NCBI GenBank assembly: GCA_030638305.1
Contig: DAOWEW010000245.1
Location: 1 to 10,077 of the forward strand
Direction of reading: 5' to 3'
Length of the DNA: 10,077 nucleotides
Source of the DNA: Desulfobacteraceae bacterium
GTDB taxonomy: Bacteria; Desulfobacterota; Desulfobacteria; Desulfobacterales; ETH-SRB1
The notes beneath the pieces are model-generated. The model was not told where the DNA came from. It worked only from the letters and a program-made list of their open reading frames with translations, and did not search any database. Positions 1-8,830 of the stretch are shown here, one piece after another. A program made the position numbers and the translations under genes. Numbering within the stretch: the first letter of the stretch is position 1; each line of letters starts with the position of its first letter.

Positions 1-601
1 CCATGGCATTGGTCGATTGCGTAATCTGGTCAATAACCTTCTTTGATATGTTGAAATTTGAAAGTAAACCAAATGCCTTTGAGTCGAACAGGTAGGTTCT
101 CTCTTTGCCGCAAAGCAATATGTCAAGGATGGTCAAACGGTTTTTGTGGGGGACAGTAAAAAATGCCGTATAGAAAGGATTGCAAAAAATTTGTGAATAT
201 TGATTTTCGCCGTTGACCTTTACCGTAGTATCGTCAACTTGGTGAAATGGCGTAGTTTCCAAAGCAGCACGGAAAATATCCTCTTTTTCCTTGTTAAAGC
301 CGGTTTCGTCATTTGTAAGGATTCTCGAAATCGTTGATTGTGAAATGAAAATTCCAGAATTTTCAAGGAGCTCCAGAATTTTTGGCTCGGACATGTTGCC
401 CACATATTTAAGCGTGCATACCAGCGATCTTACGCCAGTACCGAATTCTCCTTTAACTCCACTCGGCACTTCACCGAGGTAAGTTTTATTCTCCGCCGGA
501 GAGTAATTTTTTTCCCTTTTATATTCAACGTTGTCTGTGGTAATCAGAATTTCCTGAACTTCATCTTTGGTTTTTTTTCTCCCTTTTTCTCCCTTTTTTT
601 T
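1..601 (-). CDS. Transposase catalytic frame, partial, reached by -1 frameshift
   Basis: Reading the minus strand in the -1 frame relative to the N-terminal ORF gives about 200 uninterrupted codons to the window edge. Visible landmarks, in order, are KDEVQEILIT near the junction, YLGEVPSGVKGEFGTG, a helix-turn-helix-like stretch (MSEPKILELLENSGIFISQS), and then FHQVDDTTVKVNGENQYSQI and NPFYTAFFTVPHKNRLTILD. The VDDTTVKV segment probably carries the first catalytic Asp of an RNase H-fold DDE transposase. This is an inference, because the remaining acidic residues are beyond position 1. No good start codon or ribosome binding site is seen at its beginning, so it is probably translated as a fusion with the upstream frame. 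Confidence 0.65.
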
Positions 602-1075: not shown

Positions 1076-2011
1076 TTAAACCACCTGCATTGTTTTGTGT
1101 GGACTACCAAATTTCTTACCATATAAAATGCGGTGAAGTTCACGATAAGTAAAGTGTGGTTCATCATCTCTCAAGTAGGGAAGCAGAATTTTTTTTTGGC
1201 GGAGCAACTCTCTTGAAATTTCAGCATAAATTGTATCTTTTTTATAAAGTGCGGCTTTGGCGATTTGTTTCCCAAAGGGATTAATTATCTCGCTTCCTCC
1301 CCAGAACCGATAAGGATCATTCTCCCCATCCCCATCCCCATCTTCTTCCGTATTTTTCACGCGCCCTCTTTTTTCAAAATAATGTTCAACACCGACACGG
1401 TTTACACATATATTGTAAATTCCAAATACGCGCGAATAGAATCTATTTATGATTTCCCAGCTTTCAATATTTCTGAATTCGTTCCCCATAGAACCTTGGG
1501 ATGAATTTAAAATAGTTATAAATATATCTGCTTTCTGGCATATTCCCAGATAAGGAAGGGATGGGTGCCACATGTCGTTACAAATAAAAACGGATAAATT
1601 ATAGCCAAGCAACCTGAATATTGAGACTTGTTTTCCATTAGAAAAATATTTTTTTTCTTCAAATACTCCATAGTTGGGTAAATTTAATTTGCGATATGCA
1701 AATAGAATTTCCCCATCAACAGCAATAAGCGCAGAGTTATAAAAATTCATGGATTTTGACTCTTCAATAAAACCGACTATTGCTGCTGTTCCTTTTGTCG
1801 CAAGTGCCAGTTTTTTTATTTCCTTAGAATCTATTTTAAGGGCTACTTCATGATATCTTTCTCCAACAAAATATCCTGTCAGTGCCAATTCCGGGAATAA
1901 AATCAAATCCGCTTTTTTTTCTTTGGCTTGATGGATTTTTGAAATTGCATCTTCAAGGTTTGTCTTAATATCAAGTAAGACAGGTTCTGTCTGACAAATA
2001 GTAATTTTCAT
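1076..2011 (-). CDS. Carbon-nitrogen hydrolase (nitrilase superfamily amidase)
   Basis: This 311-residue protein spans a complete nitrilase-superfamily domain. The Glu-Lys-Cys triad is visible: E41 in LILFPELALTGY, K108 in AYRKLNLPNYGVFEE and C144 in VFICNDMWHP. The family cleaves non-peptide C-N bonds of amides or nitriles through a Cys thioester. The LPNYGVFEE..YF stretch after the Lys resembles the glutaminase domain of glutamine-dependent NAD synthetase, so a glutaminase-like or omega-amidase-like activity is a reasonable inference; the real substrate is unknown. Residues 222-230 (EEDGDGDGE) are an acidic insertion encoded by a 6-bp tandem repeat. The start lies only 10 bp after the MttB2 stop with no clear Shine-Dalgarno sequence, which points to translational coupling as the last gene of the operon. 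The gene has no synthetase domain, so it is not NadE itself. Confidence 0.9.
   Translation of the reverse strand: MKITICQTEPVLLDIKTNLEDAISKIHQAKEKKADLILFPELALTGYFVGERYHEVALKIDSKEIKKLALATKGTAAIVGFIEESKSMNFYNSALIAVDGEILFAYRKLNLPNYGVFEEKKYFSNGKQVSIFRLLGYNLSVFICNDMWHPSLPYLGICQKADIFITILNSSQGSMGNEFRNIESWEIINRFYSRVFGIYNICVNRVGVEHYFEKRGRVKNTEEDGDGDGENDPYRFWGGSEIINPFGKQIAKAALYKKDTIYAEISRELLRQKKILLPYLRDDEPHFTYRELHRILYGKKFGSPHKTMQVV
1324..1341. repeat. In-frame 6-bp tandem repeat (CCCCAT x3)
   Basis: Three perfect CCCCAT units read on the minus strand as GATGGG-type codons and give the alternating Asp-Gly run of the amidase insertion. The unit is a multiple of three, so slippage would change loop length without breaking the frame. 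Confidence 0.7.
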
Positions 2012-2021
2012 TTGCTGGTTA

Positions 2022-3257
2022 TCAATATAAAAAAGATTTGCCTGTATTTTTCAGGGTATGGTCATCGCGCATATAATTGGGTTTGCTGCTATTGCGTTTA
2101 ATAGCATCGAAACCTTCAGGATCATAAGGTTCGATTTCATAATCAGGAGCCTGATCCGATCCGATTTCTTTACATAGAACTATATGTTTTTCAAGCTTTT
2201 CTATGGAAAACGAAACTAATTCCTTTAAGAAACCAAAAGCATGCCTCATCTGATGAAAGCCGTATTTTTTCATCAATGCATAGCCATTAATTGCGTCTTG
2301 TTCGGACTTTTCATTTGGTTTTTCCTGATTTGTTGTGCAGGCGGTTTGTATGGAAGGTATGTTTAGTTTTTTGTTTATTTTTTCCAAAAGCAGGTTGGCA
2401 ATATTGTGGGATACCATACCAAGATCAACGGAATAGTTTTTCTGAATATTAGCAATGGAAGGCAGGCCTGCATCAACGACCATTATGCCCGGATTAACTA
2501 TTTGCGCAAGGGTTATTCCAAATAAGGCTTCAGCATGAGTCAAAGTCAAAAGTCCAGACATACTATAAGGCGCTGAGAGCCCTGCCATGGGCATTGTTGA
2601 AACATAAACGGGCAAGCCTTTCCTTACACACGACAGGAAAGGGTCTATCATTCCTTCAATAACGTTCAATGGGCTGTTTATAATGGAAAACTGTACTGTC
2701 AAATTACCTCTGGTTTCATGAACCTGCTGAGCCCTTGCTATGCCTTCGTCAGTTACGGCCGCAACGTAAATCGGTTTTGAGCAATTTTCAATTATTGTAT
2801 CTATTACTTTTACTTCCCTGTTTCTTATCAGTACTCCTCTTGCCATAAAATTTATTACTTTTGTTTCATTTACTATTTTTGCTATTTTTGCAAGGTGATC
2901 GAAGGTAGGAACTATCAGTTCCCCTGTGTCATCATCATAAACGAATGGTGCCGTACCTCCAACACCGAAGGAGTTTTCCGGAATCCAGTATTTGTCCCTT
3001 TTAGGGGTAGTGCTGATTGCCTGTTCAACCAGCGGACTCAGAATATGAAGATGCCCAGTAGTTTCATCAAAAGCAGCCAGGCCGGTATCTTCGAAGATCT
3101 GTCTGACTTCTGCAGAATTGCATTTAACTCCTGTTTCTTCCAGAATCTTTAATGCGTCCTGATGTATTTTTTCCAAAAGATTACAGTTTTCGAGGTCCAT
3201 TTTTTCTCCCAAAACTTGCGGTTTTGTATTCCCGTTTCTTATTAAAGTTAGCTCCAT
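2022..3257 (-). CDS. MttB-superfamily methyltransferase, paralog 2 (non-pyrrolysine)
   Basis: This 411-residue protein belongs to the trimethylamine methyltransferase (MttB/MtgB) superfamily. Members transfer a methyl group from a quaternary or tertiary amine to a corrinoid protein through a TIM-barrel fold. Recognisable blocks are LLEKIHQDALKILEETGV (27-44), GVGGTAPFVYDDDTG (98-112), MPMAGLSAP (222-230) and THAEALFGITLAQIVNPG (240-257). No in-frame UAG is present. The segment aligned by eye near the pyrrolysine or MtgB active-site loop reads TACTTNQEKP (305-314), unlike the usual GCSD-type loop. The protein is about 60-80 residues shorter than typical MttB. Its ATG at 3257 overlaps the flavoprotein stop by 10 bp and lacks a Shine-Dalgarno sequence. 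Met20 (3200) has GGGAG five nt upstream and may be the real start, giving 392 aa. It is clearly a paralog of the protein at 6286-7512. Its substrate is unknown. Confidence 0.85.
   Translation of the reverse strand: MELTLIRNGNTKPQVLGEKMDLENCNLLEKIHQDALKILEETGVKCNSAEVRQIFEDTGLAAFDETTGHLHILSPLVEQAISTTPKRDKYWIPENSFGVGGTAPFVYDDDTGELIVPTFDHLAKIAKIVNETKVINFMARGVLIRNREVKVIDTIIENCSKPIYVAAVTDEGIARAQQVHETRGNLTVQFSIINSPLNVIEGMIDPFLSCVRKGLPVYVSTMPMAGLSAPYSMSGLLTLTHAEALFGITLAQIVNPGIMVVDAGLPSIANIQKNYSVDLGMVSHNIANLLLEKINKKLNIPSIQTACTTNQEKPNEKSEQDAINGYALMKKYGFHQMRHAFGFLKELVSFSIEKLEKHIVLCKEIGSDQAPDYEIEPYDPEGFDAIKRNSSKPNYMRDDHTLKNTGKSFLY
3206..3210 (-). promoter_or_regulatory. Ribosome binding site supporting an internal start of MttB2
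   Basis: GGGAG followed by AAAAA and ATG (3200-3198) is the best Shine-Dalgarno arrangement near the 5' end of this gene. The upstream ATG at 3257 has none and would depend on coupling to the overlapping flavoprotein stop codon. The comparison with paralog 1 does not decide it, because the extra 19 residues give an N-terminal extension of similar length but unrelated sequence. Confidence 0.5.
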
Positions 3258-4579
3258 GGGAAAGGACTGTTGGAAACAGGATGAAGCTTGCCTTTTGCAT
3301 AACGTTCAAATCTGAAAGGTTTAAGCAAACTCTGTTTTTCTCCTGTAATTTCTTTGGCAATCAGTTTGCCGACACCGATCATTTTGTAACCATGATTGGA
3401 ATCAAGAATCATATAGCAATTATCTTTCATTGTATCGAAAACAGGAAAATTGTCAGGTGTAAAGGCTCCGAGGCCGCCAGACGGTTCATTCTTATAGTTT
3501 TGATATTTATCCTCATATCTTTTCTGACAGTGGGCAAGAGCGGATGTCCACATATGAACAAACTCCGGGCCTACAACAAAATCCGGGGAATCAATGCCAT
3601 ATGGATCAACCTTGACCTCTCCTTTAACAATATATGGAGCAGCTCCTCCCTGAACACCACCGAAATGAAAGTCAGGCTTATAATATATACCCCACATTTT
3701 GTCTGTTATAAGCGATCCATCCTCACTGGAATATAGAGGGGCATCAGTATCAATATGAATAACCGGTGGCATCTTGCCATTGTTATTCATAGCATAGTCA
3801 GGCGGAACTCCAAGAGTGCCTTCGACAAGGCCCCAGTATGTCCACATCTTAACGTTTTTATGAATATTCTTTTTATTATCTTTGATATCTATTTGATCAG
3901 GCAGATCAAGCATGTCCCAGAAGCTTTTAGCCCATGGGCCGGCTCCAATTATTAAATAATCACATTTAATATTTCCTTTTTGAGTTTCTACAGCGGCTAC
4001 AGAATTATTGCCTGTTTTTAATCCTGTTACCTTAACCCCTGTAAGAATTCTTACGCCTTCGGCTTCTGCCTTGTCGGCAAGGCGATAAAGTGATTTTGTA
4101 TTATGTGCATACCCACCTTTTAATTCATGCAAAACAGATGTAATGTTTTTAGCCTGCCAGTCATGAAAAATATTTTCTCTCATATATTTCAGGCATTCTT
4201 TTTCTCCCTCAATAAACAAGGAATCATAGCCTATCTCCTGCTGCTGTTTATGAATTTCAGCAACATCGGCATGCATAGGTTCGCAGGATATCTGCATATA
4301 GCCTATTGGATGATAACCGTATCCTTTTGCATCCTCTTCCCAAAGAGCAACGCTATGAGCCATGAGTTCCCGCATGGCCGGCTGAAAATAGTTATTTCTT
4401 ATTATACCACATGCAATACCTGAAGCGCCGGCTCCGATAGCTGCTTTATCAATAACAAGAATATCTTTGCCGGATCCGGCTTTTTTTTGCTTTAGTTCCT
4501 TTGCTAGATGATATGCGGTGCTTAATCCGTGTATGCCTGCACCTATAATTACATACTTGTATTTTGTTGGAAATGACAT
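3248..4579 (-). CDS. FAD-dependent amine oxidoreductase (DAO / sarcosine oxidase beta-like)
   Basis: This 443-residue protein has an N-terminal Rossmann dinucleotide-binding motif, VIIGAGIHGLSTAYHLA (10-26). It then has an SoxB-like GAGASGIACGIIRNNYFQPA stretch (49-68), a second FAD contact GAGPW (212-216), and the C-terminal FAD-binding blocks FTPDNFPVFD (373-382) and NHGYKMIGVGKLIAKE (395-410). This layout is that of the D-amino-acid oxidase superfamily, closest by eye to the beta subunit of heterotetrameric sarcosine oxidase and to dimethylglycine or glycine oxidases. These enzymes oxidise a C-N bond of secondary or tertiary amines to an imine. In an anaerobe it would probably act as a dehydrogenase. 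No alpha, gamma or delta SoxADG subunit is present. A plausible ribosome binding site AAGGTAG precedes the ATG. A 65-bp gap holding a palindrome separates it from the upstream ligase gene. The substrate is not predictable; an N-methyl amino acid or an amide-protected amine would fit. Confidence 0.88.
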   Translation of the reverse strand: MSFPTKYKYVIIGAGIHGLSTAYHLAKELKQKKAGSGKDILVIDKAAIGAGASGIACGIIRNNYFQPAMRELMAHSVALWEEDAKGYGYHPIGYMQISCEPMHADVAEIHKQQQEIGYDSLFIEGEKECLKYMRENIFHDWQAKNITSVLHELKGGYAHNTKSLYRLADKAEAEGVRILTGVKVTGLKTGNNSVAAVETQKGNIKCDYLIIGAGPWAKSFWDMLDLPDQIDIKDNKKNIHKNVKMWTYWGLVEGTLGVPPDYAMNNNGKMPPVIHIDTDAPLYSSEDGSLITDKMWGIYYKPDFHFGGVQGGAAPYIVKGEVKVDPYGIDSPDFVVGPEFVHMWTSALAHCQKRYEDKYQNYKNEPSGGLGAFTPDNFPVFDTMKDNCYMILDSNHGYKMIGVGKLIAKEITGEKQSLLKPFRFERYAKGKLHPVSNSPFPWS

Positions 4580-4593
4580 TAATCTACCTTAAT

Positions 4594-4644
4594 GAATAGT
4601 TATAACGGTTTACGGTTCAAGCCGTGAACGGCTACCGAATAGTT
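4594..4644. repeat. 35-bp palindromic insert between GAATAGTT direct repeats
   Basis: Perfect 8-bp direct repeats GAATAGTT (4594-4601 and 4637-4644) flank an imperfect palindrome that contains the perfect hairpin AGCCG-TGAA-CGGCT (4620-4633). Removing the insert and one repeat would leave the ligase stop about 22 bp from the flavoprotein ATG. It resembles REP-like CGGTTCA/TGAACGG sequences. It may be a tiny mobile palindrome with its target duplication, or an mRNA-stability hairpin. The 8-bp repeat could also be coincidental. Confidence 0.45.
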
Positions 4645-6126
4645 TTACTTAAAAGGATCCCATCTAACGGTTTGTTTTTCATAGGAAGGTGGAAATTGTT
4701 TTAAAAACTCATCATAATAAAACAATTCTTTGAAAGAAGCAAAGGGTAAGCCATAGGCTGCCTTTGGCCTTATTTTAATTTCATGGGGATCAATTTTTTC
4801 AGAAATAAGTTCATCCATGATATCATCCATGCCAACACCCATGGCAAACCTTAGTTTTTCACGATTTGCTATTTTTTCAGGAAGTATATCTCTAAATGCC
4901 TCTCTCAAGATGTACTTTTCAATCTGTTTTTCTCCATAGATTTTCCAGCTCATGGGAATTTTCTGGCTGAAATCAACTATTTTTTTATCTAAGAATGGAG
5001 TTCTATACTGAACCCCATTAGCCATCCAGGCGCGATCCAGGCGCCTTAACGCGGTGTTATAGGATATTTCCAATAACTTTTTTGCCAGCCGTTCTCTTTG
5101 CTCATCACTTTTAACTTTTGGATTTTTCAAAACCATGCGATAGCCGCCAAATAATTCATCAGCCCCTTCACCTACAAAAATACAGTTTGTATGTTCCTTA
5201 ACCATTCTTGATACATAATAATTAGAAATAATACCGGAGATACAGTCTTCATCAAAACTTTCCAGATACCATACTGCATCACTGATAAAATTTTTTACAT
5301 CTGAATCAGAGATTAAATATATATGATGTTCCAGCCCCAGATATCCGGCCATTAATTTTGCATTTTCCAGATCCGGACCCGGTGCTTTTTCAACTGCACC
5401 AGTAAAGAGTTTTAGATTTGGGTTAAATTCTTTGGCTATGGCTGCTATAATAGAACTATCCAGACCACCGCTTAAAGAGATCCCGCCAACACCATCCATT
5501 CTTATTTTGACAGCCTCAATCAGAAGATCCCTTAAAATATCAATAGCCTCTTTCATATCGGTAAATTCAGGCAATTCAGGAGAATAGGACTCAAATTCTT
5601 TCATTCCTTTCTTTGAGCTGTATATGTTGCCTGGAGCAAGTTCCTGTATATTAAATTGAACATGATCTTTTAATCCCTTCATTTCTGAACTGAAATAAAA
5701 AGTGCCATTATTTGAACCAAAAAACAGCGGCCTTGCGCCAACATGATCTCTTGCCAAAATTGTTTCCTCATCCTTTTCAACGATAGCACAGGAAAAGCTT
5801 CCATAAAGCTTTGAAAAACAATCTTTTTCATACTTTTCATAGTATTGTTTAAAAAGTTCTATGTCACTTTGGCCTTCAGGTCTGTCATTGTAAAGCTCAC
5901 CGTCAAAAAGTATATAAGGCGGTTCTTCAATCGAAGTACAATAAGTTTTATCGGGAGTTAAATTGATTTCATTGGCTCCCAAAGCACCCCTATCGTCTGT
6001 AAGAGTGCGTATTGTGCTGTTATCTGAACCACGATGGCGCATATATTTCAGCATTTTACCTACTTGCTTTGTTGAGTTGAAACTAATTTTTCCGTGTTGT
6101 GATATAATACCTGCTATACTCGCCAT
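4645..6126 (-). CDS. Asparagine-synthetase-like amide ligase with inactive glutaminase domain
   Basis: This 493-residue protein has the full two-domain AsnB architecture. The N-terminal class II glutamine amidotransferase fold (about 1-180) is recognisable from IAGIIS, RHRGSDN (30-36), DGELYN (75-80) and RDHVGARPLFF (126-136). However, the nucleophilic Cys2 is Ala, the usual (R)R(L)S(I) glutamine-binding Arg region reads GANEINL (50-56), and the oxyanion Asn of NGEIYN is Asp. Glutamine hydrolysis should therefore be lost. The C-terminal adenylating domain looks intact: the PP-loop SGGLDSS (219-225), GEGADELFGGY (319-329) and RTPFLDKKIVDF (375-386). Relatives with a dead glutaminase domain include beta-lactam synthetase, which adenylates a carboxylate and uses an internal amine. 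This enzyme may likewise adenylate a carboxylate and couple an amine or free ammonia. A GGGAG ribosome binding site precedes the ATG by 8 nt. A MITE separates it from MttB1. True asparagine synthesis from ammonia remains possible. Confidence 0.88.
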   Translation of the reverse strand: MASIAGIISQHGKISFNSTKQVGKMLKYMRHRGSDNSTIRTLTDDRGALGANEINLTPDKTYCTSIEEPPYILFDGELYNDRPEGQSDIELFKQYYEKYEKDCFSKLYGSFSCAIVEKDEETILARDHVGARPLFFGSNNGTFYFSSEMKGLKDHVQFNIQELAPGNIYSSKKGMKEFESYSPELPEFTDMKEAIDILRDLLIEAVKIRMDGVGGISLSGGLDSSIIAAIAKEFNPNLKLFTGAVEKAPGPDLENAKLMAGYLGLEHHIYLISDSDVKNFISDAVWYLESFDEDCISGIISNYYVSRMVKEHTNCIFVGEGADELFGGYRMVLKNPKVKSDEQRERLAKKLLEISYNTALRRLDRAWMANGVQYRTPFLDKKIVDFSQKIPMSWKIYGEKQIEKYILREAFRDILPEKIANREKLRFAMGVGMDDIMDELISEKIDPHEIKIRPKAAYGLPFASFKELFYYDEFLKQFPPSYEKQTVRWDPFK

Positions 6127-6140
6127 GTTTTAAACTCCCT

Positions 6141-6292
6141 ATTTAGTGCCTGAACGAAAACTGCTAATTTCCCCAATTTCTGCGTCAGGCGCAAATTTTA
6201 ATCCTCAAAATACCCCATGTATTCCTGCGGTTAAAATTTGCGCTTTCCTTAAACTTGAAAAAATTTTCTATTTTTCGTTCGGGCACTATTTA
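6141..6292 (+). mobile_element. MITE copy A (about 142 bp) inserted between MttB1 and ligase genes
   Basis: The terminal inverted repeats are GTGCCTGAACGAAAA on the left (6146 on) and, reversed, AGTGCCCGAACGAAAA on the right (ending 6287). Inside them is a second inverted pair, GCGCAAATTTTAA / TTAAAATTTGCGC. Direct repeats ATTTA flank the element (6141-6145 and 6288-6292); the exact boundary is ambiguous by one base. The core (AAATTTTAA.CCTC.AAATAC..ATGTATTCCTGC.GTTAAAATTT) matches MITE copy B in reverse orientation. No ORF is present, so it is non-autonomous. Deleting the element and one ATTTA restores MttB1 codons ending AAA TAG, with the stop overlapping the ligase GGGAG ribosome binding site 12 bp before its ATG. 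Confidence 0.75.
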
Positions 6293-7512
6293 ACAAAAAT
6301 TTTCCCAAGGTTTGCTGTTGTAAGCGGATCATCCATATACATTCTTAGACGGTTTCGCTTTATAGATTCCATTCCTCTTTCGTCATATACCGGCATCTCA
6401 ACTTCAGGGGCATCATCAGGACTGATTTCTTCTGCAATTTTAATGCTTTTTTCAAGTTTTTCTAAAGAGAAATCAATTAGATAGCGGAGGAAAGAAAATG
6501 GATGTCGCATCATATGAAATCCATATTTCAAGCATAGAGCCTGACCTTTTTTTGCATCATCATATGCCCTGTGCGTGGGATGTTCTTCATGGGTTGTTCC
6601 CGCGCTTTGAAATGTCGGTATATCAAGCATTAAATTCAGATGGCTCATAAGGATATTAAGGAAATTATGGCTTATAAGACCATAATTTGGATTATAGTCT
6701 ATCCTGGGATCGGCAATGGTCGGGAAACCTGCATGTATGCATGTTACACCAGGATTGAGTAATTGAGCTGCACATATGCCAAACAATACTTCTGCATGTG
6801 TCATGGCAAGCACCCCATTGTAACAGTAAGGCGCACTTATACCAGCCATGGGCATTGCCGATATAAATACCGGTAAGCCGGCCTTTACAACTTTTACAAA
6901 ATATTCCGAGAAGTTTTCATTGACCTCAAGGGGTGGGCGGGTAAGGCAGAAAACAATCATAATATTCTTTCTTTTTTCATAAATTTCTACTGCCTTTGCA
7001 AGAGATCTGTCTGAGGTTACGGCAAAATAAAGCGGCTTATTGCAGTTCTCATCCATTATATTCATTTGCCGGACTTCGTCCTTTAATTTTACACCTCTGC
7101 CCATACCGCTTACTATATTATTTTTTTCAGCAATCCGTGCGATCCTGACAACATGTTCTTCTGTAGGAATAACGCCGCCTTTTCCTGCTTTGTCATCATA
7201 AACATATGGCGCTGTTCCGCCTATAAAAAAACTGTTCCGAGGCACAAAAAAGTCACTTACACCCGGAACATTATTAAGGCATTGCTTAACCAGTCTCGAA
7301 GTGATAAATATCCTATCTTCATATAAAATCGCCAGGCCTTCTGATTCATATCTCTTATAAGCTCCTTGAATTTCCGGCTGTTTGCAGCCTACTCCGAGAT
7401 TTTCAAGTATCCATAATGCATCTTCATGTACCTGAAGGAGCATATCTACTGTATTTTTATTGAACAGAGATTTAGATTTTTCAATTTGTTCTTTGTTTAA
7501 TGGTTTAACCAA
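6286..7512 (-). CDS. MttB-superfamily methyltransferase, paralog 1 (non-pyrrolysine)
   Basis: This 408-residue trimethylamine methyltransferase family protein is a clear paralog of the product at 2022-3257. Shared blocks are LLQVHEDALWILENLGVG (25-42), FIGGTAPYVYDDKAG (96-110), the MGRG / DENCNKPLYF region (137-163), AMPMAGISAPYC (219-230), THAEVLFGICAAQLLNPG (238-255) and HMMRHPFSFL (333-342). The predicted active-site loop reads AGTTHEEHPTHRAYDDA (304-320), and no internal UAG (pyrrolysine) is present. The family demethylates quaternary amines onto a corrinoid protein. Some non-Pyl members act on glycine betaine, proline betaine or carnitine; the substrate here is unknown. The start is TTG (7512-7510) with AAGGAG six nt upstream; the next Met is 23 codons in. 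The stop is an amber TAG that touches the end of MITE copy A. The gene is the second of the operon, 55 bp after a zinc-ribbon gene. Confidence 0.85.
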   Translation of the reverse strand: MVKPLNKEQIEKSKSLFNKNTVDMLLQVHEDALWILENLGVGCKQPEIQGAYKRYESEGLAILYEDRIFITSRLVKQCLNNVPGVSDFFVPRNSFFIGGTAPYVYDDKAGKGGVIPTEEHVVRIARIAEKNNIVSGMGRGVKLKDEVRQMNIMDENCNKPLYFAVTSDRSLAKAVEIYEKRKNIMIVFCLTRPPLEVNENFSEYFVKVVKAGLPVFISAMPMAGISAPYCYNGVLAMTHAEVLFGICAAQLLNPGVTCIHAGFPTIADPRIDYNPNYGLISHNFLNILMSHLNLMLDIPTFQSAGTTHEEHPTHRAYDDAKKGQALCLKYGFHMMRHPFSFLRYLIDFSLEKLEKSIKIAEEISPDDAPEVEMPVYDERGMESIKRNRLRMYMDDPLTTANLGKIFVK

Positions 7513-7518
7513 TTATTT

Positions 7519-7524
7519 CTCCTT
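7519..7524 (-). promoter_or_regulatory. Strong ribosome binding site fixing a TTG start for MttB1
   Basis: AAGGAG is placed six nt before TTG 7512-7510. No ATG or GTG is available nearby in this frame, and the downstream Met24 would remove the first conserved helix region. The TTG start is therefore the best choice. Confidence 0.65.
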
Positions 7525-7567
7525 GTTCCTTGCTAAAGCATTCCGGAAACATCAGCATATAATGGTT

Positions 7568-7753
7568 TTATACAGCTTTTGCTGTGCGCTCTCCTGCCAA
7601 CCCAAGGCTCTTGAAATTCTTTATGAATTGGTTTTTGTTATCTTCTTTTCTATGTCCACACTTTGGACATCTCTTGAAGCCATATTCAGCCTCTCTGGAT
7701 GGCAGATTGTAACTGTGATTACATTTAGGACATTTCATTTTTTTTACTGGCAT
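7568..7753 (-). CDS. Small zinc-ribbon protein at the head of the operon
   Basis: This 61-residue protein has two CPKC knuckles (residues 8-11 and 29-32; MKCPKCNHSYNLP and FKRCPKCGHRKED). They are separated by about 17 residues, which is the layout of a short zinc ribbon of the MJ0042 or FmdB-like type. The C-terminal half is basic and probably helical (NQFIKNFKSLGLAGE). A purine-rich GGGGGGAAG lies just upstream of the ATG. It is followed after 55 bp by MttB1 on the same strand, so it probably belongs to the transcript. A function as metallochaperone, nucleic-acid binder or regulatory adaptor cannot be chosen from sequence. It is short, but the paired CxxC motifs and the ribosome binding site make it a likely real gene. 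Confidence 0.7.
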   Translation of the reverse strand: MPVKKMKCPKCNHSYNLPSREAEYGFKRCPKCGHRKEDNKNQFIKNFKSLGLAGERTAKAV

Positions 7754-7776: not shown

Positions 7777-7893
7777 AGTAAGGAACGTGGACGAATTAAC
7801 TTCCGCAAGTAGGCGCACAGATTTAGATCGGGCAAAGATGGCCTGATGCTGTGATGCATAGTTGCGGAAGTTATTTCGTCCACGTTCCTTACT
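7777..7893. repeat. 117-bp element with 32-bp near-perfect inverted arms
   Basis: The left arm 7777-7808 (starting AGTAAGGAACGTGGACGAAT) and the right arm 7862-7893 are reverse complements with a single mismatch (AATTAAC versus AAATAAC). The 53-bp centre contains a further stem, ATCGGGC / GCCTGAT. There is no ORF. The terminal symmetry stops exactly at AGTAAGG, and I see no target duplication in the flanks. It could be a MITE or solo IS end pair, or a structured 5' UTR of the zinc-ribbon/MttB transcript. It ends about 23 bp before the zinc-ribbon ATG. It lacks a U-run, so it is not an ordinary terminator. Confidence 0.75.
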
Positions 7894-8153: not shown

Positions 8154-8305
8154 ATGAAGAGACCTTTGAAAAATGCTCAATTTTGTTCAAGTTCAAGAAA
8201 AACGAAAATTTTAACTGCAGGAATACATTGAGTATTTCGAGGCTTAAAATTTGAGACTGATGCCAAAATTGGGCAAAAGGAAGCGTTTTGCAAAGGTCTC
8301 ATGAA
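8154..8305 (-). mobile_element. MITE copy B (142 bp) with ATGAA target duplications
   Basis: The element spans 8159-8300 with terminal repeats GAGACCTTTG / CAAAGGTCTC. Subterminal pairs are GCTCAATTTTG / CCAAAATTGGGC and AAAATTTTAA / TTAAAATTT. Perfect 5-bp direct repeats ATGAA flank it (8154-8158 and 8301-8305). Its reverse complement shares the core of MITE copy A (AAATTTTAAGCCTC, GTATTCCTGCAGTTAAAATT), and both copies are about 142 bp. The outer about 20 bp differ between copies. There is no coding potential. It lies 40 bp downstream of the MarR stop codon. Confidence 0.8.
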
Positions 8306-8344: not shown

Positions 8345-8830
8345 TTATTCAACATCAAGATCTTGTACATCAAGCATATCGGTGAGTTTTGTGAGAGAAA
8401 GAATTATTTGGTCTAATTTGTTTTCTGAAAGCATTTTCAAACCATCAATTATTTTCTGCTGAATTGGAGGTGGTGCATTCTCGGCAAGGTTTCTACCCGC
8501 TTCTGTTAACTCTATTGTAATAAATCGGCGATCCGGAGAGTTTCTTAACCTCTTAACAAAACCTTTTTTTTCCAGGCGGTCAACAATTCCTGTAACTGTA
8601 CTTGATTTAACCATAATGTGTTTGGCAATTTGTGAGGGGGGCAGGGGGCCATGTTCGTATAGCGATAAAAGACAATTAAGCTGCGGAGCGCTTACCTGAT
8701 ATTTTTTATTTAATTCCTTAGTGTAAAACTCTCCTGCCTGCATTAGCTTACGGATAGAAAATATAATTTCTTTGCTACGATTTTTGACAGGGATATCAAG
8801 TTTATCCATTTTATTTAATATGTTTAGCAT
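8345..8830 (-). CDS. MarR-family transcriptional regulator
   Basis: This 161-residue protein has a winged helix-turn-helix at about residues 45-112. Residues SAPQLNCLLSLYEHGPLPPS are followed by IAKHIMVKSSTVTGIVDRLE, with STVTGIVDRLEKKG (77-90) as the recognition helix. The wing is RNSPDRRFITIELTEAG (96-112) with the characteristic D-R-R. Flanking helices form the usual dimerisation region. MarR proteins bind palindromic operators and usually respond to small ligands. Neither ATG (8830 or codon 8 at 8809) has a Shine-Dalgarno sequence. A TTGACA/17/TATTAA promoter overlaps the first seven codons, so the shorter 154-aa form starting MDKLDIP is attractive. It lies upstream of, and on the same strand as, the methyltransferase operon and may control it, but that is inferred from position. 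Confidence 0.9.
   Translation of the reverse strand: MLNILNKMDKLDIPVKNRSKEIIFSIRKLMQAGEFYTKELNKKYQVSAPQLNCLLSLYEHGPLPPSQIAKHIMVKSSTVTGIVDRLEKKGFVKRLRNSPDRRFITIELTEAGRNLAENAPPPIQQKIIDGLKMLSENKLDQIILSLTKLTDMLDVQDLDVE

What the first reader, a model, noticed from the sequence alone, without database searches (positions are those of the whole stretch)
1076..7753. Uncharacterised six-gene operon: zinc ribbon, two MttB paralogs, dead-glutaminase AsnB-like ligase, sarcosine-oxidase-like flavoprotein, nitrilase-type amidase
Six co-directional genes have short or overlapping junctions once two small insertions are discounted. The parts resemble the logic of the gamma-glutamyl amine route (ligase, DAO-type flavoprotein, amide hydrolase, as in PuuA/PuuB/PuuD) but with unrelated ligase and hydrolase families plus two quaternary-amine methyltransferase homologs. 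A pathway that demethylates a betaine-like compound, caps it as an amide, oxidises it and releases it would use every gene. A biosynthetic role for a methylated amide is the alternative. I know of no described system with this exact set.
Basis: partly seen in the sequence, partly recalled or inferred. Interest (0 to 1): 0.75.

Follow-up and report, generated by a model that had tools for sequence, protein, structure and literature searches.

The report
Betaine-demethylation operon with exchangeable amide synthetase
Relatives of sulfate-reducing bacteria carry a conserved, apparently undescribed set of genes that seems to strip methyl groups from betaine-type nutrients together with an amide-making enzyme, which in this copy has lost its usual way of obtaining nitrogen from glutamine.

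Summary
The six genes are real and the set is not a chance neighbourhood. In 66 related loci a core MttB1 - AsnB-like - MttB2 recurs, often with an upstream MarR gene and optionally a DAO flavoprotein, an MBL-fold hydrolase, a nitrilase-type amidase, a corrinoid kit and an OpuC-type betaine importer. The zinc ribbon is local (5 of 66). The AsnB slot holds either a dead-glutaminase enzyme (22 loci, as here) or an intact glutamine-dependent one (24); both together in none of the 66. The form switched at least 4, most simply 8, times on the MttB tree. This suggests ammonia, not an amine, as the usual nucleophile, against the amine-capping picture. Most likely the operon demethylates an imported carboxylated betaine, with an amide-forming step. 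Which acid is amidated is not shown. The intact form may be an asparagine synthetase; the dead form, with a changed acid pocket, probably is not. DAO and nitrilase are accessory. My searches found no description of the set. New variant of MttB-type quaternary-amine metabolism; substrate unknown.

The parts
8345..8830 (-). MarR-family regulator, likely regulator of the unit
   Evidence: PF01047 5.5e-20; same-family gene in 33 of 66 loci, mostly just upstream of MttB1
7568..7753 (-). 61-aa zinc-ribbon protein, lineage-specific
   Evidence: PF08271 below cut-off; only in L001-L004 and L062
6286..7512 (-). MttB1: short (408 aa) non-pyrrolysine MttB-superfamily protein
   Evidence: PF06253 2.3e-19; profile hits MtgB 9yce/2qne at 4.6e-17/4.8e-17; all 10 Foldseek hits at E <= 0.001 of a low-confidence model are MttB/MtgB-type chains
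4645..6126 (-). AsnB-like amide synthetase with inactivated glutaminase domain (Ala2; AsnB Arg49 -> Glu, Asn74 -> Asp)
   Evidence: PF00733 1.6e-59; residues in 28 aligned copies; 1ct9 AsnB 1.1e-56
3248..4579 (-). DAO/sarcosine-oxidase-like flavoprotein (accessory)
   Evidence: PF01266 3.9e-35; 29 of 66 loci; GxGxxG, Arg61, His396, Lys399 in 26 of 26 aligned copies
2022..3257 (-). MttB2: second short non-pyrrolysine MttB-superfamily protein
   Evidence: PF06253 2.8e-32; 38 of 66 loci
1076..2011 (-). nitrilase-superfamily amidase (accessory)
   Evidence: PF00795 8.2e-38; Glu41/Lys108/Cys144 in 18 of 18 aligned copies; nearest solved chain is a glutamine-dependent NAD synthetase, matched in its N-terminal part, 5kha 2.7e-28
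6144..6288 (.). small inverted-repeat element between MttB1 and AsnB
   Evidence: 17-nt arms, 94% complementary; gap under 20 bp in L001 and L002
7777..7893 (.). small inverted-repeat element upstream of the zinc ribbon
   Evidence: 38-nt arms, 92% complementary
8159..8300 (.). third inverted-repeat element between MarR and the operon
   Evidence: 35-nt arms, 77% complementary

Best explanation
A MarR-controlled quaternary-amine demethylation operon of desulfobacterial-type bacteria. A carboxylated betaine is imported by an OpuC-type ABC transporter (encoded beside the genes in part of the relatives, not in this window). MttB1 and MttB2, short non-pyrrolysine MttB-superfamily enzymes, move methyl groups to a corrinoid protein and then to folate. 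The AsnB-like enzyme between them adenylates a carboxylate of the pathway substrate or product and turns it into a carboxamide with ammonia: free ammonia in the dead-glutaminase form seen here, ammonia from glutamine in the intact form. Optional enzymes finish the job: the DAO flavoprotein oxidises a remaining N-methyl amino acid and the nitrilase-type amidase hydrolyses the amide. Shown: gene set, conservation, repeated exchange of the two AsnB forms, intact synthetase and amidase catalytic residues, linkage to betaine import and corrinoid proteins in part of the loci. Inferred: demethylation direction, ammonia as nucleophile, a betaine-derived carboxylate as the acid that is amidated, order of steps.
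For: Core MttB1-AsnB-MttB2: 36 of 46 AsnB-bearing loci have MttB2; nine of the other ten have at most 5.9 kb of sequence after MttB1 and the tenth (L043) looks decayed. Over 146 genomes of one order, 13 of 14 MttB2 genomes carry an AsnB form against 5 of 132 others, Fisher p 9e-14 (from lists read off). A corrinoid protein beside the genes in 10 of 66 loci, in 5 of them with pterin methyltransferase, activation-domain protein and full-length MttB as well. Of 18 loci with an OpuC-type binding protein, 16 show the motif EYTGT (two gave no match to the pattern; 7 of the 18 are in the second, AsnB-less context); by spacing its Tyr and Thr match F293 and T296 of EgtUC, of which T296 contacts the ligand carboxylate (passages of PMC9732360). 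Intact form: glutaminase Cys/Arg/Asn/Asp in 26 of 26 rows; dead form: Cys in 0 of 28, Arg->Glu and Asn->Asp in 28 of 28, yet SGGxDS and the Glu348-, Asp351- and Lys449-equivalents in 28 of 28. Repeated switching of form on the MttB1+MttB2 tree. Of six dead-form genomes tested three carry AsnA and two lack AsnRS, and the positions aligned with T-T-x-R of E. coli AsnB read D-C-x-S in 28 of 28, so its acid is probably not aspartate.
Against: No locus shows what is amidated. The intact form may simply make asparagine: nine genomes with it in the operon have AsnRS in 9 of 9 and AsnA in 1 of 9, and outside the operon it lies beside a glutamine-synthetase-like gene (L085, L087) or between purF- and glyA-like genes (L075). 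The acid-site residues of the two forms differ, which speaks against one shared acid. One operon (L076) holds both forms side by side. The dead form also occurs apart from MttB genes in 3 of the 7 genomes of the order that have it. Two MttB1+MttB2 loci (L050, L058) have no AsnB. Corrinoid proteins are not beside the genes in 56 of 66 loci; no B12-binding_2 domain was found in 2 of 8 genomes, both with MttB1 (split in one) and no MttB2 found. DAO keeps the Arg and Lys that in sarcosine oxidase bind the carboxylate (roles recalled), so it is unlikely to act on an alpha-amide.
Confidence: 0.35

Rival explanations
1. Nitrogen sink. MttB1/MttB2 (and DAO) degrade the betaine; the AsnB enzyme has aspartate as its acid and stores the released ammonia as asparagine. 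It is in the operon for nitrogen economy, not as a step on the betaine.
For: Intact form in glutamine-synthetase-like and purF/glyA-like contexts; intact-form genomes have AsnRS in 9 of 9 but AsnA in 1 of 9; in G071 the operon copy was the only AsnB-like hit besides a 513-aa frame matched only in its GATase part.
Against: The dead form has a changed acid site in 28 of 28; of six dead-form genomes three carry AsnA and two lack AsnRS. AsnRS is general in the order (119 of 146 genomes) while either AsnB form is found in only 18, so most members get asparagine otherwise; and G065 and G103, which hold the intact form outside the operon, show no AsnRS. Frames of about 600-690 aa with AsnB-like matches occur in 13 of 19 genomes, so the intact form need not be the asparagine synthetase.
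Confidence: 0.28
2. Amine capping: the dead-glutaminase ligase joins a methylated amine to an amino acid, DAO oxidises it, nitrilase releases it, as in PuuA/PuuB/PuuD.
For: Glutaminase clearly dead, 28 of 28; DAO and nitrilase present with intact catalytic residues.
Against: The slot is held by an intact glutaminase in 24 of 46 loci and has switched repeatedly; DAO not seen in 17 and nitrilase not seen in 25 of 46 AsnB loci, some of these cut by contig ends.
Confidence: 0.12
3. Biosynthesis of a methylated amide or osmolyte, with MttB proteins running towards methylation.
For: AsnB-like amidotransferases occur in osmolyte synthesis (the N-acetylglutaminylglutamine amidotransferase model TIGR03104 hits the protein at 129.6 bits, far below its 570.1 cut-off).
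Against: Import system of the betaine type, MarR regulator, nitrilase amidase and sarcosine-oxidase-like partners fit uptake and breakdown better; the MttB-superfamily enzymes in the abstracts and passages I saw demethylate.
Confidence: 0.1
4. The nitrilase protein is the missing ammonia supplier: a free-standing glutaminase (NadE-like) feeding the dead AsnB.
For: Nearest solved chain is a glutamine-dependent NAD synthetase, 102 bits against 67 for the next.
Against: Nitrilase is as frequent with the intact form (11 of 24) as with the dead form (10 of 22).
Confidence: 0.08

Closest known systems
MtgB-type glycine betaine demethylation (Desulfitobacterium, Methanolobus) and related non-Pyl MttB enzymes (MtcB, MtyB)
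   Same: MttB-superfamily enzymes without pyrrolysine; corrinoid protein and pterin methyltransferase adjacent in some loci; betaine import linked
   Different: Two paralogs of about 400 aa instead of one of about 480-500; an AsnB-family amide synthetase between them; optional DAO, MBL hydrolase and nitrilase
AsnB, glutamine-hydrolysing asparagine synthetase (E. coli 1ct9)
   Same: Same two-domain architecture; synthetase motifs intact
   Different: Glutaminase Cys, Arg and Asn lost; acid-site residues changed; lies between MttB genes
beta-Lactam synthetase / carbapenam synthetase (1jgt, 1q15)
   Same: AsnB relatives (also hit by the profile); recalled: their glutaminase domain is inactive too
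   Different: Weaker match (77 and 71 bits against 196 for AsnB); no lactam-type partners seen; here the slot alternates with an intact form
Putrescine gamma-glutamylation (PuuA/PuuB/PuuD) and gamma-glutamylmethylamide routes (recalled)
   Same: Ligase, DAO-type oxidase and amidase in one unit
   Different: Unrelated ligase and hydrolase families; DAO and amidase missing from part of the loci; ligase slot also held by an intact amidotransferase

Membership tests
MttB superfamily, non-pyrrolysine branch | PF06253 fold and sequence | tested here: met
   both proteins above the curated cut-off; for MttB1 the four solved chains hit by sequence are MtgB and MttB, same by fold (model pLDDT 61)
MttB superfamily, non-pyrrolysine branch | no in-frame amber/pyrrolysine | tested here: met
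   frames open without stops; in the MttB1 profile the MttB Pyl aligns with Thr
MttB superfamily, non-pyrrolysine branch | corrinoid-dependent methyl transfer from a quaternary amine | not testable with these tools
   linkage to a corrinoid protein in 10 of 66 loci only
Glutamine-hydrolysing asparagine synthetase AsnB | N-terminal Cys nucleophile and Arg/Asn of the glutaminase site | tested here: not met
   Ala2, Glu and Asp in the window; Cys in 0 of 28 copies
Glutamine-hydrolysing asparagine synthetase AsnB | ATP/PPi loop SGGxDS and catalytic Glu, Lys of the synthetase site | tested here: met
   28 of 28 copies
Glutamine-hydrolysing asparagine synthetase AsnB | aspartate as acid substrate | tested here: inconclusive
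   acid-site residues changed; genome-context test small
beta-Lactam synthetase type | inactive glutaminase domain with intact synthetase motifs | tested here: met
   (that these enzymes share it is recalled)
beta-Lactam synthetase type | intramolecular amide (lactam) formation | not testable with these tools
   no matching partner genes recognised among the recurring neighbours
gamma-Glutamyl-amine pathway (Puu-type) | glutamine-synthetase-like ligase and class I GATase-type hydrolase (recalled) | tested here: not met
   ligase is PF00733, hydrolase PF00795
Nitrilase superfamily amidase | Glu-Lys-Cys catalytic residues | tested here: met
   18 of 18 aligned copies
DAO / sarcosine-oxidase-like flavoprotein | FAD-binding GxGxxG and substrate-carboxylate Arg and Lys | tested here: met
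   26 of 26 aligned copies; equivalence to the Arg and Lys of monomeric sarcosine oxidase judged by eye and recalled

The most novel reading that the evidence does not exclude
An undescribed anaerobic route in which the carboxylate of a betaine or of its demethylated product is first amidated by an AsnB-family enzyme and only then fully demethylated and released by an amidase. In the window's form the former glutamine pocket of that enzyme has turned acidic (Arg->Glu, Asn->Asp in 28 of 28 copies) and may hold ammonium or the quaternary amine itself.
Probability: 0.22. Interest if true: 0.8.

Novelty: new variant of a known kind. Interest (0 to 1): 0.6.

Why it matters
Betaines are abundant nitrogen osmolytes in marine sediments, and few members of the MttB superfamily have a known substrate. 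Here two short MttB paralogs are tied to an amide synthetase in many uncultured desulfobacterial genomes and in two named strains (Desulfonema magnum, NaphS2), so substrate and product can be tested. The slot where an intact and a dead glutaminase form replace each other is a natural experiment on what the glutaminase domain is for.

Tried and rejected
Substrate by MttB active site: the MtgB positions proposed in PMC6855144 (Y94, N199, R309, H345; passages) rest on docking, and my alignment around them is ambiguous; only His345 clearly has an equivalent (His337, by eye), so I drew no conclusion. Structure models (16-row alignments) came out at mean pLDDT 61 (MttB1) and 69 (AsnB): enough for the fold of MttB1, not for pockets; I did not search with the AsnB model. 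Nitrilase as ammonia supplier: no bias towards the dead form. Dead form as a housekeeping asparagine synthetase: found at E <= 1e-100 in only 7 of 146 genomes of the order, six of them with MttB1 and the seventh (G038) in another MttB operon, although in three of the seven the copy itself lies apart from MttB genes. Tandem ancestor with loss against swapping: L076 has both forms side by side, but I could not decide; pairwise identities of each form follow those of MttB only loosely (Spearman 0.41 dead, 0.30 intact).

Limits and dropped rows: the scan that gave the 66 loci needs exact peptide patterns, so more distant groups are not sampled. Neighbour counts use one query per family and at least 35% identity. 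Contig-cut proteins were left out of residue counts and trees (22 dead-form loci gave 21 rows, 24 intact-form loci 21; the window and extra copies from fetched genomes bring these to 28 and 26). Searches covered 20 of 24 intact-form and 19 of 22 dead-form loci, plus L050 and L058. In the 146-genome count the lists were read by eye; MttB2 there means a second, weaker hit (E 1e-104 to 1e-118) of the MttB1 profile beside MttB1, and a contig-end fragment in G088 was not counted. The 15 genomes were chosen by me, not drawn at random, and their completeness is not given.

Recalled, from no call: residue numbers and roles in E. coli AsnB (Cys1, R49, N74, D98, T322, T323, R325, E348, D351, K449) and monomeric sarcosine oxidase (R52, K348); the Thr/Asp difference between broad and choline-specific OpuC/OpuB binding proteins; the PuuA/B/D and lactam-synthetase chemistry; names of most neighbouring proteins read from the start of a translation (glutamine synthetase, purF, glyA, UroD-like, PrpD, RpiR, sarcosine-oxidase subunits, the AAA ATPase).
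Full report
What is in the window. Small inverted-repeat elements lie at 6144-6288 (between MttB1 and AsnB) and, upstream, at 7777-7893 and 8159-8300. L001 and L002, whose MttB1 is 93% and 92% identical, have a MttB1-AsnB gap under 20 bp. A MarR gene (8345-8830) lies upstream in the same direction, then an AAA-ATPase-like ORF (by eye); the left end holds pieces of an IS66-type transposase (below cut-off).

Conservation. No genome is held for the window. A scan of genome contigs with a 16-row MttB1 alignment gave 66 loci. Most record titles name Deltaproteobacteria- or Desulfobacterales-type MAGs, some only Proteobacteria or bacterium; named strains are Desulfonema magnum (L019), NaphS2 (L032) and Desulfococcaceae HSG8 (L049, MttB1 alone). 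In the protein database 924 proteins matched MttB1 at E <= 0.001, not all of them necessarily of this subfamily. Around MttB1 the order MarR - MttB1 - AsnB - DAO - [MBL-fold hydrolase] - [OpuC-type ABC transporter] - MttB2 - nitrilase recurs with losses and with the transporter also elsewhere. Of 66 loci: AsnB form 46, MttB2 38, MarR 33, DAO 29, MBL hydrolase 25, transport ATPase 23, nitrilase 22, betaine-type binding protein 18, corrinoid protein 10, zinc ribbon 5. Many loci are cut by contig ends, so these are lower bounds. Five loci (L015, L021, L030, L042, L047) show the complete corrinoid kit: activation-domain protein, full-length MttB, pterin-binding methyltransferase and B12-binding protein (families, presence).

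Over 146 genomes of one order (centre D. magnum), MttB1 was found in 26 (E below 1e-190) and MttB2 in 14, each time on the same contig close to MttB1. The dead AsnB form was found in 7 and the intact form in 15, at E <= 1e-100; 18 genomes have at least one. AsnB (either) is present in 13 of 14 MttB2 genomes against 5 of 132 others, p 9e-14.

A second context. Of 61 MttB1 rows, 45 have AsnB nearby, 12 instead have sarcosine-oxidase-like subunits, a large GATase/SIS protein, a PrpD-like or an RpiR-like protein and no AsnB (7 of these 12 with the betaine-type binding protein), and 4 have neither. On the MttB1 tree these labels are strongly clustered: 5 changes, as low in 0 of 200 shuffles. A different nitrilase-family protein lies next to MttB1 in one of the second-context loci (L078).

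The exchangeable amide synthetase. In the AsnB context the slot is held by one of two enzymes about 28-33% identical to each other; in none of the 66 loci did I find both. In the intact form the glutaminase residues are present in 26 of 26 rows; in the dead form Cys2 is absent in 28 of 28 (25 Ala, 2 Pro, 1 Ser), Arg is Glu in 28 of 28 and Asn is Asp in 28 of 28, while the synthetase motifs are intact in 28 of 28. On the MttB1+MttB2 tree of 36 rows (34 labelled) the form changes 8 times by parsimony, at least 4 forced by well-supported branches. The window's nearest kin show it: L001, L003 and L062 have the dead form, L002 the intact one, with MttB1, DAO and MttB2 of L002 at 91-92% to the window. 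Most genomes keep one form: of 20 with the intact form in the operon 4 hold the dead form elsewhere; of 19 with the dead form 5 hold the intact form elsewhere. One operon (L076) has MarR - intact - dead - MttB - corrinoid protein - MttB, and in L081 the intact form is near MttB and activation-domain genes. So either form usually suffices, which points to ammonia as the common nucleophile; this is inference.

Which acid? Against a shared acid, the positions aligned with E. coli AsnB T322/T323/R325 (numbers recalled) read D-C-x-S in the dead form (28 of 28) and S-L-x-R in the intact form (25 of 26, one with A at the first position). Outside the operon the intact form sits beside a glutamine-synthetase-like gene (L085, L087), between purF- and glyA-like genes (L075), or with no evident link (L082, L083, L084; in L086 I did not resolve the neighbours). 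In 15 chosen genomes, those with the intact form in the operon have AsnRS in 9 of 9 and AsnA in 1 of 9; those with the dead form have AsnRS in 4 of 6 and AsnA in 3 of 6. GatB, the transamidase marker, is present in 12 of 15. This suggests that the intact form can make asparagine for the cell and that the dead form does not. Against leaning on it: the sample is small and the genomes may be incomplete; AsnRS is general in the order (119 of 146) although only 18 genomes have either form; G065 and G103 hold the intact form outside the operon and show no AsnRS; and frames of about 600-690 aa with AsnB-like matches occur in 13 of 19 genomes.

Link to betaines. The linked binding protein tested belongs to PF04069. 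Of 18 loci with such a protein (11 in the AsnB context, 7 in the second), 16 show EYTGT and two gave no match to the search pattern. In EgtUC the carboxyl group of the ligand contacts K242, T296 and R379, and F293 is part of the aromatic cage (passages, PMC9732360); the F293/T296 spacing matches Y and T of EYTGT (my comparison, no alignment run). Together with the recalled Thr/Asp difference to choline-specific proteins this favours a carboxylated betaine over choline. Such motifs are common in the family, so this does not name the compound.

Methyl transfer. MttB1 is related by sequence and by a low-confidence model to MtgB/MttB chains. Among eight genomes searched for the B12-binding_2 domain, six have it; D. 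magnum has one, in a 214-aa protein beside a UroD-like protein and far from the operon; the two without it have MttB1 (split in L043) and no MttB2 found. The acceptor is therefore not part of the operon in many hosts.

Literature. Searches for the combination returned nothing relevant: (0 papers; 0; 0; 1, an unrelated Lactiplantibacillus study by title; 8; 48, 15 listed; 206, 20 listed), none of the listed ones about this gene set by title or start of abstract. Of PMC12478193 I saw the outline, abstract and start of the introduction; of PMC9842639, PMC6855144, PMC9732360 and PMC7396694 I saw passages. The library lacks most subscription journals.

Verdict. The minimal unit is two MttB paralogs plus an amide synthetase; DAO and nitrilase are accessory and the zinc ribbon is local. 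I commit to amidation of a pathway carboxylate by ammonia at 0.35, with a nitrogen-sink (asparagine) role close behind at 0.28. The odds are as I first set them; the check changed counts and wording only.

Noticed in passing
window 2-469 and 544-858, - strand: Pieces at the left edge of the window: 2-469 has a weak IS66-type transposase match (DDE_Tnp_IS66 22.2 bits, cut-off 23.1); 544-858 has no Pfam match and may belong to the same element.
   Followed up: no
L048, L050, L052, L056-L058, L078, L079: MttB1 in a second conserved context with sarcosine-oxidase-like subunits, a 900-1500 aa GATase/SIS protein, PrpD-like protein, RpiR-like regulator and OpuC importer in varying combinations: another undescribed betaine-linked unit.
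   Followed up: partly
L076:6912-14464: MarR - intact AsnB - dead AsnB - MttB - corrinoid protein - MttB: both AsnB forms side by side in one operon.
   Followed up: partly
L019, L060 and others (cluster c3): A PF12706 metallo-beta-lactamase-fold hydrolase with an N-terminal Cys motif is a frequent operon member (25 of 66 loci) but absent from the window.
   Followed up: no
L043: Apparently decayed copy of the operon in uncultured Desulfobacterium TRIP AH-1: MttB1 match in two pieces, no MttB2, partial nitrilase match.
   Followed up: no
L068:9484-10842 and L069:8309-9529: Solitary MttB1 paralogs in D. magnum and Desulfococcaceae HSG8 without a recognisable operon partner in the stretches read.
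   Followed up: partly
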